From a virus: a DNA stretch of 31,766 bases. Below the pieces are notes generated by a model. That model saw only the letters and a list, made by a program, of their open reading frames with translations. It ran no database searches and had not been told where the DNA came from. Positions 4,201-25,002 of the stretch are shown one piece after another. The position numbers and the translations under genes were made by a program. Location of the stretch: the IMG/VR virus record IMGVR_UViG_3300006753_000034, positions 1 to 31,766 of that record, one strand, 5' to 3'. The stretch's first letter is position 1; each line of letters starts with the position of its first letter.

Positions 4201-5988
4201 CTCGATACGAAGATTGGTGTCATCAAGCTTCCGCCGCCGCTTAACAACATTCTTGAGGAATTGATTGGCGAACTTAGGCTCACTACCTTCCGCCCTGATC
4301 GCTCCGATGAAACCATCTTCATCCTTCAAAAAGCTATTCAACTCTTTGATTTTGGCCTCACGCTCCGGAATAGCCTTTTGCAGACCCCGATGATATTTCA
4401 TCTGCGCCTCAGTCAACGAACCTTTTTCACCCCATTGAGCCTCAAGGCTATCGAAGGCTTCATAGTCCCGCTTCAACCTACCGATCTCTCCAAGCTGAAA
4501 AGCCTCGTTAGGCGCATCCGGATCACCATCCATATACTTCCGGATGAACTCTCTTGACCGGGGAAGGTGGACTTCCGCCAGATACTTCGCTTCCTTCTCC
4601 AAACGACGAATGCCAAAGACACCAGCCTCGTTACCCAATTCACCCATTGTGTCGTAATACTTTTTAAGGTGGCCCACCGCAGCAGTCATGTTTGGATCTG
4701 CATGAGTACCGCCAGAGATATAAAGCCGGGAAACATCATCCAAGAACTGAGCGTAGTGCTTGCCTTGGAATTTCACCGTATCAAATATTGATGAAACCAC
4801 CTGTCTGCCAGCAGTCATATCAACTGCATCATCGGCCATCACACCAGAGAACCGCTTGTATGAATTATAAAGCCCACTCTTGGCTTCCATCACATGAACA
4901 TTAAGCAGCGTAGCTTTGTTAAATACGCCCTGCGCTTGGGCCACACCAACCGTAGCGCCCTTAGTCATCATCCCCGGAGGGCCAGAGATCCGATCCGCAA
5001 CCCGCCTAAATATATTGCCAAGCTGACCGCCAAACGTGGTGTTCTTCAACATGAAGTACGGATGCTGAGATAAGCGCCACCCTTCAATACCAATGCCGGT
5101 AGATAAGAACTGATCCGGATCCCATAACTTAGCCGCATCACTGAGATCGGAATAAATCTTATCGTCACCGGCAATTAATTCTAGCCGAGCATTATAATCT
5201 GCATCAGTCTCCCGGCCAGTTTTCTCAACAAACTCTTTCAAATGGCTAATACGAGACTGCCCTTCTTTGATCTCAACAAAAGGCTTAACCCCATCAAGCA
5301 GAGTATCATCAACTTCTTGCAGCCGGTTATACGCATCAAGACCGTTGTTGTGGGTTTCAAACCACCGCTTCCCGGCAAGCTGCATGGTTCCCGGCTTCAT
5401 GCTGCCGACAAGACCGCCAATGGCACCACCGAATAACGCACCACCAGCAATAGCAAGCACCGGCTCAAGCGGGTGATTAGTTGGGTCTATATCTGCCCGG
5501 ACAGTTTCAGACACGGCAAAGGGGCCAGCAACGCCAAGCGCACCACGTTTAAACCCCCCAACGAACCCCAATCCCTTCGCAAGAGGAATTGGTATCAAGT
5601 TAATCGGATCAATAAGATTACCCATAAGCCGAGCAAAACCATGATTTTCAAGATTGGTTCTATGCTCAATATTCCTATCGATCATCAGCTTCCGCATCTC
5701 TACTTCTTTTGGAGATGTAGCAGTAATAAACTCTTCTAACCATTGATCGTAACCCTCAAGATCACCATCATCAATCGGGTTAAAGCCCTCGACTTCCGGG
5801 GGGCGAAAGCCATCATTTTCAAATCTATAAATCAAACTTTGGGCGATTTGCCCAACACCAGTATCTAAAGCAGCCGCAGTCATCATACGCTCCATAAAGG
5901 ATTGCTCACCAGTAATGCGCTTATACGATTTAGCGTGAGCGTTCTTCTGCGCTTGGATCTCTTCCAGTGTGTTCCAGAACTCACCCAC
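1279..5988 (-). CDS. Very large internal virion / DNA ejection protein (T7 gp16 position)
   Basis: This is a 1,569-residue protein at the end of the three-gene internal virion cluster, where T7-like phages place the largest ejection protein. I chose the GTG start because it overlaps the upstream stop (TAGTG) and is preceded by AAGGAG. Hydrophobic or glycine-rich stretches occur near residues 125-155 (LIDPINLIPIPLAKGLGFVG) and 180-200 (AIAGGALFGGAIGGLVGSM), and the centre and C-terminal third are helix-rich. In T7 the equivalent protein leaves the capsid and helps form a channel across the cell envelope. I see no obvious lytic transglycosylase motif at the N-terminus, where T7 gp16 has one. 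The assignment rests on size, order and composition rather than on a motif. Confidence 0.75.
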   Translation of the reverse strand: MGEFWNTLEEIQAQKNAHAKSYKRITGEQSFMERMMTAAALDTGVGQIAQSLIYRFENDGFRPPEVEGFNPIDDGDLEGYDQWLEEFITATSPKEVEMRKLMIDRNIEHRTNLENHGFARLMGNLIDPINLIPIPLAKGLGFVGGFKRGALGVAGPFAVSETVRADIDPTNHPLEPVLAIAGGALFGGAIGGLVGSMKPGTMQLAGKRWFETHNNGLDAYNRLQEVDDTLLDGVKPFVEIKEGQSRISHLKEFVEKTGRETDADYNARLELIAGDDKIYSDLSDAAKLWDPDQFLSTGIGIEGWRLSQHPYFMLKNTTFGGQLGNIFRRVADRISGPPGMMTKGATVGVAQAQGVFNKATLLNVHVMEAKSGLYNSYKRFSGVMADDAVDMTAGRQVVSSIFDTVKFQGKHYAQFLDDVSRLYISGGTHADPNMTAAVGHLKKYYDTMGELGNEAGVFGIRRLEKEAKYLAEVHLPRSREFIRKYMDGDPDAPNEAFQLGEIGRLKRDYEAFDSLEAQWGEKGSLTEAQMKYHRGLQKAIPEREAKIKELNSFLKDEDGFIGAIRAEGSEPKFANQFLKNVVKRRRKLDDTNLRIEEFRNTSVKNPDEMSHGHFPRFWNQQAIRENRDELVKILEDWYGKDAGAVKRAEATVDSILKEHDPGLVKRTLREGLEATGADPQAIRVMERKVDDIFSRKKPKKTDATAFRNAQRADARALMKEYMENYGFGDDIKAQVAEALSEIERISASGHPEGFGAAMSTFERVLDIPSAFLIRGEGRSRGIASVDFIEVNPESVMRAYHRRMSASIEMTHEFGDPTMRNFMEELSDQIDELAEAAGGVTKEADEIRAEGKLQLQAMQDLSQKVLGVYNIPADPGSIGNRSVRAIKNFMVLALMGKPAIAALADVGRGVMSVGAKQAFEGAFAKFSHGIEDFKIAGAMVNEAGEAGEMAIHGRFEAMFDLEGFVTSQNAFEKMLESGVNKMFILNGLMPYTDMMKRFFGSLIQSQMIKSSLAWAGDAHFERSTVNSLFHGSNLRDGRTLENFIDLDGNLRLKASSNFEGRQVGVSLTDVEESARDYAARIKGGGPFGISKRDAIVFEIDRASIKEDIIDEAMNEKFIALDEGGEIVIPKGSFKVHNFADDFEALNAFSSKTAEEMVERFGSDTSKLSDDQIKELFEISVKDVEAAEMAEHTRFFESTEKLNQESIDIVNAFGSDPELAIRAEFANNLLRKIVKSSDEWKADLHLVDSGYETEQELFDRILNGLMDDFDVRDPMGLIGFSSSETKGLDISAVEIPSKYQEAIGEIVIKGKAGKISERDMTDLTRNGIGFEDAVRIAQEYAKHGKQGDALHLANVGAWDDPVIQKTFRTALVQEINNAVITPGPAERLNFMSTPIGALMTQFKSFAFSATHRTLLAGLQQRDAKALHGIMAMIAMGYLVDRIKSPSYDQRDLLSIDRFVQAVDYSGATGILFDVDNMIEVISGNEVGLRPLLGVDSFFKDPNLAQRTGQIGGPAASLGFDLLHTIFSPEATGSDYARSVRRLMPFNNLIWWSGLVDQLQRSVGADLEKDDE

Positions 5989-20695: not shown

Positions 20696-20915
20696 AACAA
20701 ACCCCACAGCAAAAAAAATATTTCAAACACTCCAATCCATATAACACAGGAGTAAAGAATAAGTGAAGAACCTTTCTGGGAAAAATTGGGTGGATGGGAC
20801 ATATACTCGCAAGGCCAGGTAGTTTTTTAACCCCTCCTTCCGCCTAGCGTTGCACATCACTACAAGCTCACCCGAGGTTCGCTTACCGTTCGATCAGCCT
20901 CAACGAACATCTCAC
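20696..20915. other. Intergenic stretch after the small terminase
   Basis: About 220 bp between the end of the small terminase gene and the short coiled-coil gene. I see no convincing gene, tRNA or terminator. On the minus strand a TTCACT and TTATAT pair 17 bp apart (about 20738-20766) is a weak promoter candidate. Confidence 0.35.
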
Positions 20916-21344
20916 TCAGCCTAGATCAATACTGATCTTTATGTCGCCTTGGACCGAGTGTTGTTTACGTTCTGGTGGCTTAAAGCCAATCCTATCTAGG
21001 ATGCTATCACTTGCCTGCAGCTTCACATACTCAGACCGACCTGACTTAGCTAATTGAACCAGAGAATTAGACGCTACAACACCGGCAAGACTTAACTTCT
21101 CACCAATCTCCTTTTGTATAATCTCCTGCACATAAGGATCAGCGAGTGCTTGGCTCACACTTACCCTGTTGCAATTCAGTGCGTTAGCTGTAGCAGTAGG
21201 GCCATCGCCGGTAGTTATATAATGATCAATGATCTTCTTCCGGAGCGGGGTTAATTGCTTCCTGCGTGTCTCTGCTGCTTGAGGCTTAGTGAGGAATCCT
21301 GGCTTGTTATTATCTCTGTATGCTTTGGGGTTTTCTTTGGTCAT
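20916..21344 (-). CDS. terS: Terminase small subunit
   Basis: A 142-residue protein with the usual small-terminase layout: a basic N-terminus, a helix-turn-helix (residues about 34-70, GDGPTATANALNCNRVSVSQ then ALADPYVQEII), and a C-terminal helical part SEYVKLQASDSILDRIGFKP, the 'vklqAa..iLdr.G' segment common in these proteins. It binds the packaging site and loads the large subunit. Unusually it is separated from terL by four small genes. The ATG has GAGG eight bases upstream. It is the first gene of the leftward late module. Confidence 0.75.
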   Translation of the reverse strand: MTKENPKAYRDNNKPGFLTKPQAAETRRKQLTPLRKKIIDHYITTGDGPTATANALNCNRVSVSQALADPYVQEIIQKEIGEKLSLAGVVASNSLVQLAKSGRSEYVKLQASDSILDRIGFKPPERKQHSVQGDIKISIDLG

Positions 21345-21431
21345 TCAACAACCTCTTTTCTTTGTTCCTTCTCTTGCTTGTCGCTTGTTGGGTGTATCTC
21401 TTTCCCCCTCTTTACTCCCCCTCTGGGGGAT

Positions 21432-21473
21432 AGATAAGGGGGATTTGAAATCCTTGTCAACGCACAAAACACC
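21432..21473 (-). promoter_or_regulatory. Candidate late promoter with 13-mer repeat copy 4
   Basis: The fourth TCAACGCACAAAA (21457-21469) is followed on the minus strand by a perfect TTGACA (-35, 21460-21455) and, after 17 bases, TTATCT as a poor -10. It lies 113 bp upstream of the small terminase start. The leader downstream can form GGATTT/AAATCC and CCCCC/GGGGG hairpins. Confidence 0.5.
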
Positions 21474-21549
21474 TGTATGAGACAGCCTTACTGCCCTTCT
21501 TTCTGCTATGTAGTTGATAATGCTTATTGTTTATGTTGGGGATAAGTCC

Positions 21550-21593
21550 AACCAAAAGGGATCATGCTTGTAACCCGCAGTCTACGATCCCTT
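21550..21593 (-). terminator. Terminator of the inverted decayed gene copy
   Basis: On the leftward transcript AAGGGATCGT pairs with ATGATCCCTT (one G-U pair) around a loop containing GCGGGTTAC, followed by four U. It is the inverted relative of the rightward terminator at 22680-22720, with stem changes that keep pairing. Confidence 0.55.
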
Positions 21594-21606
21594 GTCGGGT
21601 GTTGGG

Positions 21607-22013
21607 TCACGAAGCTAACTCAGCATACGGCACTCCGTTCGGCAGCATTATTCTGATCATCCTTGCTGGCAGGGATTGTCGGGCTTGCGAATAGTAATCC
21701 AGCCATCATTCAGTCCTCCGTAGTCCGATCCGCAGAGGCATCCAGCCAAGGCATCGGATCTTGTTGATCTCATCAACACGCCCCGCCTTGGCGCTGATGT
21801 CTTACTTGTCGCTCATCGGGGTGGCCCATGTGCATCACCTTATGAGTTCTTCTCTGCCTTCCTGCTAATTGCTGAGGGTCACATTGAAGAGGCAATCATT
21901 GGAGAATTGTAAGGAAGCGAATGCCCAACGTCGAACCACTGGCTCATTAAAGCGAAGCGTTCCACCGTCTTTTTTGTCGAGGATTTTGGGAATTTCCTAA
22001 AAGTCTTGGTCAT
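21607..22013 (-). pseudogene. Inverted, decayed copy of the 22261-22662 gene
   Basis: Read on the minus strand, this stretch aligns end to end with the intact gene at 22261-22662: ATGACCAAGACTTTT against ATGCCTAAGACTTTT at the start; CAAAATCCTCGACAAAAAAG, CCCCGATGAGCGACAA, TGCTGCCGAACGGA inside; and AGCTTCGTGACCCAACAC against AGCTTCGTAACCCAACAC at the end. Small deletions near the fifth codon and in the TTACAATTCT region shift the frame, and in-frame stops follow; the ATG frame ends after about 44 codons. Homology continues into the leader and the terminator. By eye roughly two thirds of positions match. It is a pseudogene or a sequence now kept for a non-coding role. Confidence 0.85.
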
Positions 22014-22032
22014 AAGAGAGATGTACTAACCT

Positions 22033-22054
22033 GTTGGTTAAAGTTGAGGATCGA
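22033..22054. repeat. Left arm of perfect 22-bp inverted repeat
   Basis: Starts GTTGGTTAAAGTTGAGG and is the exact reverse complement of 22225-22246. It is the leader of the decayed copy and is far better conserved than the coding part. Weaker arm similarity continues inward (TGACTACTTTGTAG against TGACTTCTTTGTGG). Confidence 0.9.
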
Positions 22055-22073
22055 GCCTACAAAGTAGTCATTG

Positions 22074-22121
22074 CCACCACAAGGGTAAATGCACTGGCCT
22101 TCGGCCAGCCCTTGGTGGTGG
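22074..22121. other. Long nested hairpin between the inverted arms
   Basis: CCACCACAAGGG (22074-22085) pairs with CCCTTGGTGGTGG (22109-22121) with one bulged base; inside, CTGGCC (22094-22099) pairs with GGCCAG (22103-22108) around TTC. Both strands can fold. There is no U-tract, so it is not a classical terminator. It could be a structured RNA element or an origin-type stem-loop. Confidence 0.7.
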
Positions 22122-22125
22122 TTAG

Positions 22126-22203
22126 TATGGGGTCACGCCTATGGGGTCACGCCGTGGGCGTGACACTCTTTGTAATACGTGGGCGTGACACTCTTTGTAA
22201 TAC
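22126..22203. repeat. Iteron-like tandem repeats (2 x 14 bp and 2 x 25 bp)
   Basis: TATGGGGTCACGCC is repeated perfectly at 22126-22139 and 22140-22153. It is followed by two perfect 25-bp copies (22154-22178 and 22179-22203) beginning GTGGGCGTGACACTC and ending TTTGTAATAC. The cores GTCACGCC and GGCGTGAC are reverse complements, so four sites occur, two in each orientation. At the junction (22146-22164) they form an 8-bp-arm palindrome. This arrangement suits a replication origin or a multi-site operator for a dimeric protein. Confidence 0.8.
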
Positions 22204-22224
22204 ACTGACTTCTTTGTGGACGGA

Positions 22225-22246
22225 TCGATCCTCAACTTTAACCAAC
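22225..22246. repeat. Right arm of perfect 22-bp inverted repeat
   Basis: TCGATCCTCAACTTTAACC and the next three bases; exact reverse complement of 22033-22054, immediately before the ribosome site of the intact gene. Its conservation in both arms suggests a regulatory or 5'-leader function. Confidence 0.9.
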
Positions 22247-22260
22247 TAGGAGTACATCTA

Positions 22261-22662
22261 ATGCCTAAGACTTTTGAAAATATCACCAAAATCCTCGACA
22301 AAAAAGACGCCTCCACTTGGGTTAAATCTCAGATGGTTCGGGCAGTCGCTTACAATTCTTTCAATGATTACCTCTACAATGTGAAGCAATTAGAGGAAGG
22401 CAAAGAAGAACTGGTGATGCACGAAGCATCCCCGATGAGCGACAAACAATTGTTAGACATCATCACCAAGACGGAACGTGCCGATGAGCAAGCTCCGGAG
22501 TTCTTGGCTGTCTACCATGCGGCTCAAGTGGACTACGAAGTCATCAACGATGGCTTCAAGTATTACCATCCGGAAGACCCGGACAATCCCAAAGCCAGCA
22601 AGGCTGCTCAGAATAAAGGGTCTGCTGCCGAACGGATTGCCGAGCTTCTTAAAGCTTCGTAA
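22261..22662 (+). CDS. Hypothetical early protein with inverted pseudogene partner (133 aa)
   Basis: The ATG at 22261 has AGGAG eight bases upstream; the frame is open 15 codons further but through the conserved leader. The protein starts MPKTFENITKILDKKDASTW, is acidic and helix-rich, has no cysteine, signal or membrane segment, and ends in an Ala/Lys helix. I recognise no family. It is the first gene of the rightward module and has its own terminator at 22680. A decayed inverted copy with leader and terminator lies at 21550-22072. Single-gene transcription and the elaborate upstream region suggest an abundant early product; what it does is unknown. Confidence 0.7.
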   Translation: MPKTFENITKILDKKDASTWVKSQMVRAVAYNSFNDYLYNVKQLEEGKEELVMHEASPMSDKQLLDIITKTERADEQAPEFLAVYHAAQVDYEVINDGFKYYHPEDPDNPKASKAAQNKGSAAERIAELLKAS

Positions 22663-22679
22663 CCCAACACTCTCCTCCG

Positions 22680-22720
22680 AAAGGGATCGTAGCCTACGGG
22701 TTACGGTCCCTTTTTCTTTG
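22680..22720 (+). terminator. Strong intrinsic terminator
   Basis: AAAGGGATCGTA pairs with TACGGTCCCTTT (12 bp, one G-U) around a ten-base loop and runs into TTTTT. It follows the 133-aa gene by 17 bases. Confidence 0.85.
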
Positions 22721-22761
22721 ACATATACCCAACCGACGCAGAAAGAAGGGGAGTTTTAATT

Positions 22762-23007
22762 ATGAATTATGTGACTGTTGTTATCGTTGCTTGCATAGCG
22801 TTGCACTTAACAATGAGTAAGGTGGCTGACATCGAAGAAGCTACCGATGGTGGCTACATTATCAGTGCCATCGAAGGTTATACATTCGATGCTCAATGCC
22901 AGTATCCAAGCTGGTACTTCGAAGAACTTAACGTGGTTAAGATGTATAATATTGTACGTCATGTGCAGCCTTGTCTCTTACCCCATCAAATCTATGAGGA
23001 TCAGTGA
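22762..23007 (+). CDS. Small protein with N-terminal hydrophobic segment (81 aa)
   Basis: The ATG has GGGGAG eight bases upstream. Residues about 3-17 (YVTVVIVACIALHLT) form a hydrophobic segment with little charge before it, either a membrane anchor or an uncleaved signal. The rest is acidic with aromatic residues (YPSWYFEELNVVKMYNIV) and two cysteines (CQYP and PCLL). I know no family. It is followed immediately by the next gene (TGA then ATG), so the pair is co-translated. A role at the host membrane during early infection is inference. Confidence 0.6.
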   Translation: MNYVTVVIVACIALHLTMSKVADIEEATDGGYIISAIEGYTFDAQCQYPSWYFEELNVVKMYNIVRHVQPCLLPHQIYEDQ

Positions 23008-23238
23008 ATGACTGACAAAGAACAGATCAAATCCCTCACGTTAAAGGTGGCTCAACTTACGATGCGCCTTGATAAACTCGAAGCCTTTATCGTTACCGAT
23101 CATCCTCATTGGTGCGATCCTCTTGATAATATCCCTCAAATTCTTACCGAAGATACGCTTATTGATACAGTAATAAGCGTGGTCAATACCAAATTCTATA
23201 TCAGTTCTCGCATTGAACTTGAAAGGAATGGAAGTTGA
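23008..23238 (+). CDS. Hypothetical protein with N-terminal coiled coil (76 aa)
   Basis: It begins directly after the stop of the membrane-type gene. Residues about 5-28 show heptads (IKSLTLKVAQLTMRLDKLEA), implying oligomerisation. The rest has no recognisable motif. The stop overlaps a TTG that opens the next short frame. Function unknown. Confidence 0.55.
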   Translation: MTDKEQIKSLTLKVAQLTMRLDKLEAFIVTDHPHWCDPLDNIPQILTEDTLIDTVISVVNTKFYISSRIELERNGS

Positions 23239-23411
23239 CTGATCTTCAACTTGAAACCATCAAGCATAAGCATACCCAATCAGATCAAGGTGTCTCGCTT
23301 GAAGAATTTATCGCCACATCCCAACCAACAATAGGATGTGATGATGCTGTCGCTATACAGTGGTGCGGAATGTGGCTCTGCATTGAAACCGATGGCTATT
23401 GTCACACATAG
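23235..23411 (+). CDS. Short TTG-start protein (58 aa)
   Basis: A 58-codon frame opening with TTG that overlaps the preceding stop (TTGA), with AAGGA seven bases upstream. The translation starts MTDLQLETIKHKHTQSDQGV and contains four cysteines in its second half (IGCDD, QWCGMWLCIE, YCHT), possibly metal binding. It fills an otherwise empty gap between co-oriented genes and ends 11 bases before the DUF932-like gene. I recognise no family; the unusual start keeps the confidence moderate. Confidence 0.5.
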   Translation: MTDLQLETIKHKHTQSDQGVSLEEFIATSQPTIGCDDAVAIQWCGMWLCIETDGYCHT

Positions 23412-23422
23412 GAGCAAAGATT

Positions 23423-24349
23423 GTGAACTTTATAAATTCAACAACCATTGACGACATCGACTTGTCGGCTATGGATTTCCCGGTGGAACTGCAAGACATT
23501 TTCACTGAGCGTCCCGGCAAAGCTTGGATGTCTAACACTAAAACATATACTGCCGTCAGTCGTGACCGAGCGCAAGCGGTGGTGCGTACTGATACGCATG
23601 AAGTCTTAGGCGTACATGGTGGGCGGTATGCTCTCCGATCCTTCAACGATAACGCTGGTCGTATGATCGAAGCGTTAAAGGAAAGCGACATTGATCTGGC
23701 TGATGTGACAGGCAAGATCGAAGTCTTTGAAGGTGGCCGCAAGCTCAAGGCTGAACTGATCCTACCTAAACACGCCATCGAACCAGCCATCGGTGACATC
23801 ACACAGCTACGCTTTAAGATGTGGGATAGCTATGATGGTACGTTTGCCAGCCAGCATATCCTTGAAGGCTATCGCTTGTGGTGTCTCAACGGGTGTACCT
23901 CTCGTAACTTTGCACTCAAGGCACACCAGAAGCACACCAAGCAGATCACGGGTGACTTCCAGATGGAAGCTGCGGTCAACAAAATGAACGTAGCTATGCT
24001 TGCCTTCCATGAAAGGGAGGACGAGTTCAGAAGGTGGATCGCCCAACCTGTCCAGCGTGAGGAAGTACAGGATATGTATACCCGAACGCTGGCTCTATCA
24101 CCCCGCCCATCCAAGCCTGATAACGTCAGCGATAAGGTGTTGGATAACCTCATGCAACTGTTCGATAGTGAACAGCGTAATGTATGGGGAGCATACAACG
24201 CAGCGACAGCGTGGGCCTCACACCCTGAGACTAAGGGCAAGGCATACAACGTCGAGCGTACCCGTGAGGGTAAGGTATCCTCCATGCTACGAGGTAAGCA
24301 CTGGCTTGAACTGGAGAGGGCAGACAATGACATCGTAACCGCAGCATAA
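23423..24349 (+). CDS. DUF932-family protein
   Basis: A 308-residue protein. The start is a GTG with AGGAG eight bases upstream. The stretch from the N-terminal third, DTHEVLGVHGGRYALRSFND, followed by a strand-rich middle (VFEGGRKLKAELILPKHAI) and then SQHILEGYRLWCLNGCTSRN, matches the layout of DUF932 (phage/plasmid-like) proteins, found on phages and plasmids and of unknown biochemical role. The C-terminal part (NVWGAYNAATAWASHP with later AYNVERTREGKVSSML) is also typical. It ends before a terminator. It is often found near recombination genes, but no activity can be assigned. Confidence 0.8.
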   Translation: MNFINSTTIDDIDLSAMDFPVELQDIFTERPGKAWMSNTKTYTAVSRDRAQAVVRTDTHEVLGVHGGRYALRSFNDNAGRMIEALKESDIDLADVTGKIEVFEGGRKLKAELILPKHAIEPAIGDITQLRFKMWDSYDGTFASQHILEGYRLWCLNGCTSRNFALKAHQKHTKQITGDFQMEAAVNKMNVAMLAFHEREDEFRRWIAQPVQREEVQDMYTRTLALSPRPSKPDNVSDKVLDNLMQLFDSEQRNVWGAYNAATAWASHPETKGKAYNVERTREGKVSSMLRGKHWLELERADNDIVTAA

Positions 24350-24372
24350 TTCCTCCCCACTCCATTAAACTC

Positions 24373-24415
24373 GGGGGCTTGGTCTTTAGTATCGGATCAA
24401 GTCCCCATTTTTTTT
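24373..24415 (+). terminator. Intrinsic terminator after the DUF932-like gene
   Basis: GGGGGCTTG pairs with CAAGTCCCC (one G-U) around a 16-base loop, followed by A and eight T. Confidence 0.85.
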
Positions 24416-24420
24416 GTGAA

Positions 24421-24441
24421 GTGTTCCCAAAATGGGAACAC
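24421..24441. promoter_or_regulatory. Perfect 21-bp palindrome, probable operator
   Basis: Arms GTGTTCCCA and TGGGAACAC separated by AAA. It lies between the terminator and the next ribosome site, just where a promoter for the three-gene cluster 24464-25238 should be. No U-tract follows, so an operator is more likely than a terminator. Confidence 0.6.
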
Positions 24442-24463
24442 CTAACAAACTATGGAGTATGCA

Positions 24464-24640
24464 ATGCCAATCGACGAACAAGTAGGACTACTCACCACTG
24501 ACCTAATGTATTGGGAAGGTAAACTCTCTGCTGCTGAACAGGTGGAAGAGAACAAATCAATCAGCGAGATCAAAGGGTTCATAGCTCACATCAACAACGA
24601 GCTATTCAGACTTGGCGATCTCCTAGATATTGAGGTATGA
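24464..24640 (+). CDS. Hypothetical acidic protein (58 aa)
   Basis: The ATG at 24464 has GGAG six bases upstream; an ATG four codons earlier lies on the ribosome site. The 58 residues (MPIDEQVGLLTTDLMYWEGK and onward) look like a two-helix acidic protein (SEIKGFIAHINNELFRLGDL). No family is recognised. It is the first of three tightly packed genes: its stop is inside the ribosome-site region of the next. Confidence 0.6.
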   Translation: MPIDEQVGLLTTDLMYWEGKLSAAEQVEENKSISEIKGFIAHINNELFRLGDLLDIEV

Positions 24641-24642
24641 AC

Positions 24643-25002
24643 ATGACTAGCACAATCGAAACACCAACTGCCGATGCACCATTAGATGAGCGCATTAAAC
24701 TGCGTGAAGCTAAAATTGCAAAGCTAGAGGCAGCAATGGCTGGCACTGAGGCTGAACTAAGCGTAGCTAAAGCAAGGCTTAATGCAGTAGAAGTTTTGTT
24801 TCGTCCGGTAATCGAAACAATCTGCGCGGAACAAATCGACATTGCGATGGAGGCTATGGATATTAGTTCCTTAATTGACAATGCCTATCCAACGGTAGTG
24901 ACAGAAGATAATGTCTACGAGTATGCTGTCACCGAAGATGATCTCAAAGAAAAAGTCGTTGATGTTATCAGCAACCTAGACTTTTCTATCGAGGTAAACT
25001 AA
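24643..25002 (+). CDS. Hypothetical coiled-coil protein (119 aa)
   Basis: Two ATGs are close together; the one at 24643 has GAGG seven bases upstream. Residues about 15-55 form a coiled coil (LREAKIAKLEAAMAGTEAEL), followed by an acidic region (TEDNVYEYAVTEDDLKEKVV). It is strongly acidic overall. Function unknown; acidic early proteins of phages often bind host enzymes, but nothing here identifies a target. The stop overlaps the next ATG (TAATG). Confidence 0.6.
   Translation: MTSTIETPTADAPLDERIKLREAKIAKLEAAMAGTEAELSVAKARLNAVEVLFRPVIETICAEQIDIAMEAMDISSLIDNAYPTVVTEDNVYEYAVTEDDLKEKVVDVISNLDFSIEVN

What the first reader, a model, noticed from the sequence alone, without database searches (positions are those of the whole stretch)
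21550..22720. Half-kilobase inverted duplication: decayed copy of a gene with leader and terminator intact
Reading the minus strand of the apparently empty region 21550-22072 gives a sequence that matches 22206-22720 from before the leader to after the terminator. The gene part of the left arm has lost its frame, but the 22-bp leader segment is identical in both arms and the left terminator still pairs (AAGGGATCGT with ATGATCCCTT) despite changes relative to the right one. Conservation of control elements around a dead coding region suggests that the leftward transcript, the leader or the palindrome itself has a function: a non-coding RNA, a decoy for a leader-binding protein, or an origin-like structure. 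An inverted repeat this size is also normally unstable, so its persistence is of interest.
Basis: seen in the sequence. Interest (0 to 1): 0.85.

Follow-up and report, generated by a model that had tools for sequence, protein, structure and literature searches.

The report
Kilobase hairpin RNA mirroring a gene
In a large group of marine bacterial viruses, the 'dead' mirror copy of a gene is really one strand of a giant folded RNA of up to about 1.3 kb that evolution keeps base-paired, a kind of RNA for which I found no earlier description; its job is not yet known.

Summary
The inverted repeat is real: 21535-22073 against 22203-22733, 73% identical over 584 columns, alignment score 1549 against at most 531 for shuffles. 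It is not a decaying duplicate. The same imperfect inverted repeat sits just upstream of terS in 59 of 79 dereplicated related phage contigs, and in the isolate Pelagibacter phage EXVC031P Hodr. The two arms co-evolve: in a nine-sequence family of full-length 1.24-kb repeats, 97.8% of cells stay paired and 80 pairs changed on both sides, against 5-12 in slid controls. Bulges and mismatches stay put, which excludes gene conversion. G.T mismatches outnumber A.C 502 to 73 on the terS-sense strand, so the selected molecule is most likely an RNA read toward terS (leftward here): a giant imperfect hairpin, predicted at -713 kcal/mol against -390 for shuffles. Its 5' strand is antisense to the intact gene; its 3' strand is the 'decayed' arm. 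In the long class the stem covers the gene's transcription unit up to its terminator. Transcription was not observed and function is open. My leading model is that antisense RNA folds back on itself and so avoids pairing with the gene's mRNA; rivals are a trans-acting rod RNA or a leader control element.

The parts
22203..22733 (-). 5' strand of the predicted hairpin RNA (right arm read leftward): antisense of gene E, its leader and its terminator
   Evidence: arm alignment and fold; pairing selected in relatives
22074..22202 (-). apex of the hairpin, 129 nt, with tandem 14-bp and 25-bp repeats
21535..22073 (-). 3' strand of the predicted hairpin RNA (left arm): the supposed decayed gene copy
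   Evidence: covariation in relatives
22261..22662 (+). gene E, 133 aa, intact, first gene of the rightward module; predicted helical hairpin, function unknown
   Evidence: E homologues in relatives evolve under purifying selection
22681..22719 (+). terminator-like stem and U-tract of gene E; hairpin stem ends about 15 nt beyond it
   Evidence: sequence
21556..21593 (-). mirrored terminator stem inside the left arm; still self-pairs here, not in L063 or L005
21431..21460 (-). promoter-like TTGACA-N18-TATCTA between hairpin and terS; TTGACA conserved at this place in nearly all relatives
20916..21344 (-). terS, small terminase subunit
   Evidence: PHROG 2538, E = 1.7e-10

Best explanation
Shown (about 0.93): the repeat encodes the two strands of one giant imperfect hairpin, and in the families tested selection preserves base pairing within the terS-sense (leftward) strand. 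Inferred from mismatch polarity (about 0.85): that strand acts as RNA. The 5' strand is the antisense of gene E; the 3' strand, the 'decayed copy', is an E-mRNA-like mirror that evolves to follow E. Mechanism, inferred (about 0.4, the confidence given here): some transcription runs toward terS through E and makes RNA fully antisense to E mRNA. As it emerges it folds back on its own mirror, so the antisense part is locked in cis. It then cannot form a perfect duplex with E mRNA, which would silence E or expose both RNAs to RNase III. The model expects the stem to cover the sense-antisense overlap, and in the long class the stem runs from 58-114 nt upstream of the E start codon to E's terminator. 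Pairing can stay imperfect because it need only win kinetically, and a perfect palindrome would be unstable as DNA and cleavable as RNA.
For: Covariation: L106/L112, 34 pairs changed on both sides against 6.1 expected, 30 still Watson-Crick against about 2 expected; nine-sequence family, 97.8% of cells paired and 80 double-changed pairs against 37-42% and 5-12 when slid; independent short-hairpin family, 98.7% and 14 against at most 1. Bulges and mismatches persist (41/51 and 68/78), so not gene conversion. Strand polarity: G.T 502 against A.C 73; lower RNA energy on the terS strand in 39 of 42. Window RNA -713 against -390 +/- 10 kcal/mol for 25 shuffles. Stem end tracks the end of E's terminator within about 15 nt in the long class. 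Synonymous change in E is suppressed inside the hairpin: 0.12 against 1.02 and 0.41 against 0.72.
Against: No transcript has been observed, and no consistent promoter was found upstream of the hairpin's 5' end. A conserved promoter-like element lies between hairpin and terS, so terS mRNA may not carry the hairpin. 20 of 79 loci lack a detectable hairpin, and many of these still have an E-like ORF on the opposite strand. L088 breaks the terminator rule. In the short class the stem ends inside E, which needs an RNA start there that I could not show. Hodr's hairpin shows no strand polarity. Covariation was measured in relatives, not in the window's own lineage.
Confidence: 0.4

Rival explanations
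1. The hairpin is a functional rod-like non-coding RNA acting in trans (decoy for dsRNA-binding or defence proteins, RNase sink, scaffold), and gene E simply lies on the opposite strand of one arm.
For: Pairing is conserved with no conserved sequence across families. A hairpin-forming RNA from the terS/terL genes of staphylococcal phages is sensed by CBASS (PMC10686824), showing that RNA of this region can matter to host defence.
Against: Does not explain why the stem ends at E's terminator in the long class, nor the wide range of lengths, about 140 to 1310 nt in total.
Confidence: 0.27
2. The hairpin is the leader of a terS-direction (late operon) transcript and controls that transcript: it hides an otherwise untranslated RNA of up to 1.3 kb from Rho and RNase E, or times late expression.
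For: RNA polarity is toward terS; in L088 and Hodr the 3' strand runs into terS; no terminator-like site was found on the minus strand at 20800-25000 of the window.
Against: A conserved promoter-like element lies between hairpin and terS, so late mRNA can start below the hairpin; the match of stem and E transcription unit is unexplained.
Confidence: 0.18
3. The quasi-palindrome works as DNA (single-stranded replication or packaging structure, or cruciform).
For: It sits beside terS and the early/late junction; G.T, G.A, G.G and T.T mismatches are also the milder ones in DNA, so single-stranded DNA of the terS strand would show a similar bias.
Against: A cruciform would use both strands and show no polarity; G.T is preferred over G.A 108 to 58 although unpaired columns show no excess of transitions (19:38); ends match a transcription unit.
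Confidence: 0.1
4. A neutral, decaying inverted duplication, with or without gene conversion.
For: The left arm has no frame; collinear with gene, leader and terminator.
Against: Compensatory changes about 15 times expectation with bulges retained; the 20 arm pairs tabulated are all 68-79% identical, none higher; recurrence at one site in 59 of 79 contigs.
Confidence: 0.03

Closest known systems
Rod-like RNAs: hepatitis delta virus RNA and obelisks (from general knowledge)
   Same: Long self-complementary rod with a protein-coding frame tied to one arm and imperfect pairing
   Different: Those are circular RNA replicons; this is encoded in a dsDNA phage, no ribozyme was found, and the frame is antisense to the folded strand rather than in it
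cabRNA of staphylococcal phages (PMC10686824)
   Same: Structured phage RNA from the terminase region, without shared sequence between phages
   Different: Less than 50 to about 400 nt and transcribed from the terS and terL genes themselves; here up to 1.3 kb upstream of terS, and no host sensor is known
Large structured phage-associated RNAs (GOLLD, ROOL; from general knowledge)
   Same: Large non-coding RNAs found in phages
   Different: Those are multi-branched with conserved sequence and have family models; this is an unbranched rod with no conserved sequence and no Rfam match
Cis-encoded antisense RNAs
   Same: 5' strand is fully complementary to a gene's mRNA
   Different: Carries a co-evolving mimic of the target that would mask the antisense in cis; I know of no described precedent

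Membership tests
Structured (base-paired) RNA element | Compensatory changes preserve pairing across relatives | tested here: met
Structured (base-paired) RNA element | RNA-type strand polarity of G.U pairs | tested here: met
   G.T 502 against A.C 73 on the terS strand; not seen in Hodr
Structured (base-paired) RNA element | The RNA is transcribed | not testable with these tools
   no RNA-seq at hand; no consistent promoter upstream of the hairpin
Rfam families (including GOLLD, ROOL and self-cleaving ribozymes) | Match to a covariance model at gathering score | tested here: not met
   0 matches in the window and in 9 related loci
Cis-antisense RNA | Strand complementary to a coding gene | tested here: met
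   5' strand is the complement of gene E
Cis-antisense RNA | The antisense RNA is made and acts on the mRNA | not testable with these tools
   needs expression data
Neutral pseudogene or decayed duplicate | Arm changes independent of the intact copy | tested here: not met
   both-changed pairs 34 against 6.1 expected
cabRNA | Transcribed from terS/terL and activates a CD-NTase | not testable with these tools
   only the location near terS was compared
HDV-like or obelisk RNA replicon | Circular RNA genome with self-cleaving ribozyme | tested here: not met
   encoded in a DNA phage contig; no ribozyme match in Rfam

The most novel reading that the evidence does not exclude
A new class of kilobase rod-shaped phage RNA, found in many marine podoviruses, in which a non-coding mirror of a gene is kept complementary to the gene's antisense strand, either to lock antisense RNA in cis or to serve as a sequence-independent double-stranded effector.
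Probability: 0.6. Interest if true: 0.92.

Novelty: categorically new. Interest (0 to 1): 0.83.

Why it matters
It would show that evolution can maintain hundreds of base pairs of RNA structure between a gene's antisense strand and a non-coding mirror of it, in a widespread group of marine phages, while looking to any annotator like an empty or pseudogene region. The cultured SAR11 phage Hodr gives a ready test system for how phages handle overlapping divergent transcription, or for a sequence-independent phage dsRNA. It also warns that 'decayed inverted copies' should be tested for covariation before being called dead. The novelty rating would fall if a described precedent exists; I found none in Rfam or in a limited search of open-access papers.

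Tried and rejected
Neutral pseudogene and gene conversion: rejected by covariation with retained bulges. Assembly artefact: rejected by independent contigs and an isolate. Known RNA family: no Rfam match. Function through protein E: no convincing Pfam or PHROG match, and only a generic helical hairpin with no significant fold match. Promoter for the hairpin RNA: no consistent sigma-70 site upstream of its 5' end. RNase III avoidance through short runs: paired runs are only slightly more even than random (sd 4.45 against 5.03) and runs above 22 bp exist, so not a strong rule. blastn with some gap costs missed most of the repeats, so gap-tolerant Smith-Waterman was used. Of wider TerL relatives, MEP301, vB_Pun_Y3, Mwe-JY08, Ss1 and Pmp11 show no comparable repeat; VA-RY-3 has only a short one (score 84) and BcepC6B one of score 96 at the very start of its record, neither followed up. 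Literature searches gave no precedent; the HTVC010P-type genomics paper was not held. The script ended with an error after printing its table, which is complete.

Full report
OBSERVATION. The inverted repeat is present and far beyond chance: score 1549 against at most 531 in 200 shuffles. Arms are 21535-22073 and 22203-22733 with a 129-nt apex. The divergence is unusual, with 60 mismatches but 41 gap openings. Two contigs from other metagenomes carry it almost unchanged. The right arm is an intact 133-aa gene, here called E, with leader and terminator; the left arm has no frame.

SETTING. The window is a virus contig related to podoviruses of marine bacteria: the best connector hits are Pelagibacter phage Hodr and Methylophilales phage MEP301. 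The late module runs left from terS (20916-21344). The rightward module begins with E. The repeat lies exactly between the two.

RECURRENCE. Searching viral contigs with the window's TerL and with TerS gave over 150 related loci. With gap-tolerant alignment, a significant inverted repeat appears just upstream of terS in 59 of 79 dereplicated loci. In an earlier set, 253 control windows elsewhere in the loci never exceeded a score of 54, whereas the repeats reach 774. Two size classes exist: about 1130-1310 nt in total (window, L063, L106, L112, L098, L122, L005, L149, L109, L115, L171) and mostly about 140-480 nt. The cultured phage EXVC031P Hodr has one (arms of about 390 nt, score 400). HTVC010P has a weaker one at the corresponding divergent junction (126 against 60 in shuffles). 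Over the 20 repeats first tabulated, arm identity is always 68-79%, never higher, which does not look like snapshots of neutral decay.

CO-EVOLUTION. L106 and L112 are 81% identical over 1.3 kb. Taking pairs from L106 alone, 34 of 423 Watson-Crick pairs changed on both sides (6.1 expected) and 30 of these remained Watson-Crick (about 2 expected). In the same comparison 41 of 51 mismatches stayed mismatches and 68 of 78 unpaired bases stayed unpaired, and the compensated pairs are scattered along the arm, mostly singly. Gene conversion would erase mismatches and indels together, so it is excluded. On a nine-sequence alignment the consensus structure keeps 97.8% of cells paired, with 80 pairs and 253 cells changed on both sides; partners slid by 1-3 columns give 37-42%, 5-12 and 13-32, and no shuffle of 500 reaches the observed values except for the count of pair types. 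That structure was derived from the same alignment, which favours it, but the pairwise test does not share this weakness. A second family of short hairpins gives the same picture: 98.7% of cells, 14 pairs and 38 cells, against at most 1 and 3 when slid. In that family one pair changed together, G-C to U-A, in the two sequences L101 and L105 that sit in different subgroups.

STRAND AND MOLECULE. Over 40 hairpins, opposed bases on the terS-sense strand are G.T 502 times and A.C 73 times; G.A 381 against C.T 142; T.T 198 against A.A 56. The terS-sense RNA folds more stably than its complement in 39 of 42 loci, by up to 245 kcal/mol. The window's own RNA is predicted at -713 kcal/mol against -390 +/- 10 for 25 shuffles. 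One-sided changes from Watson-Crick pairs go to G.T 108 times, G.A 58, A.C 37, while unpaired columns show no excess of transitions (19:38). This favours RNA over single-stranded DNA but does not prove it. Hodr alone shows no polarity.

RELATION TO GENE E. E is a real gene: a Shine-Dalgarno and start codon at a corresponding place in most loci, and dN/dS of 0.12-0.39 in most comparisons (0.63 in one close pair). In two comparisons its synonymous rate is lower inside the hairpin than outside: 0.12 against 1.02 for L018/L034 and 0.41 against 0.72 for L016/L024, though the inside parts are short. In the long class the stem begins 58-114 nt upstream of E's start codon and ends within about 15 nt of the end of the U-tract of E's terminator wherever one was found; L088 is the exception. 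So the stem covers the E transcription unit. In the short class it ends about 20-105 nt inside E in most loci. In L088 and Hodr the 3' strand runs into terS coding sequence and still pairs, which a decayed duplicate could not easily explain. The E protein is a predicted helical hairpin (pLDDT 86.7) with no significant relative of known function.

MECHANISM. Shown: pairing within the terS-sense strand is under selection in the families tested. Inferred: the molecule is an RNA. Inferred with less confidence: the 3' strand exists to lock up the antisense of E made by terS-direction transcription, which explains why the stem matches the E transcription unit. Against this, no transcript or promoter for such an RNA is known. 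A conserved promoter-like element (TTGACA, about 18 nt, an AT-rich hexamer, often a G-tract) lies between hairpin and terS in nearly all loci, with or without hairpin, so late mRNA may start below the hairpin. Rivals are a trans-acting rod RNA, a leader-control device and, less likely, a DNA element.

COMPARISON. No Rfam family matches. cabRNA (PMC10686824) is a structured RNA from terS/terL and shows that phage RNA of this region can be sensed by hosts, but it differs in place and size. Rod-like HDV and obelisk RNAs are similar in form only. Literature searches found no precedent.

VERDICT. Observation confirmed; interpretation partly supported; a widespread giant hairpin, not found described, with very strong evidence for selection on pairing and an open function.

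Noticed in passing
window 21431-21460 (-) and corresponding places upstream of terS in nearly all loci: Conserved promoter-like TTGACA-N18-AT-rich hexamer, often followed by one or two G-tracts about 13-14 nt apart, present with or without the hairpin; likely the late promoter, and the G-tracts might be a terminase (pac or cos) site.
   Followed up: partly
KC465898.1 (HTVC010P), record 34563-34892 and 1-31 (L196, L195): Inverted repeat (score 126, shuffles at most 60) between the first leftward gene and an unannotated 92-aa ORF at 3-281, at the corresponding divergent junction of HTVC010P; no RNA polarity of mismatches.
   Followed up: partly
window 22126-22202: Tandem 14-bp and 25-bp repeats at the hairpin apex, forming a GTCACGCC/GGCGTGAC palindrome flagged as terminator-like on the + strand.
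   Followed up: no
OQ414635.1 (L174): The record titled EXVC031P Hodr bears locus tags 'EXVC032PBaldr', and its terminase genes are labelled hypothetical protein.
   Followed up: no
window 21736, 21743, 22545 against L004: Three of the seven differences between the window and its nearest relative (6407 bases compared) fall in the hairpin arms; two hit unpaired positions of the predicted fold and one breaks a G-C pair.
   Followed up: yes
L174 about 4880-4910: In Hodr a TTGACA-N17-TATACT promoter-like site toward terS lies inside the 3' arm of the hairpin (sequence printed).
   Followed up: no
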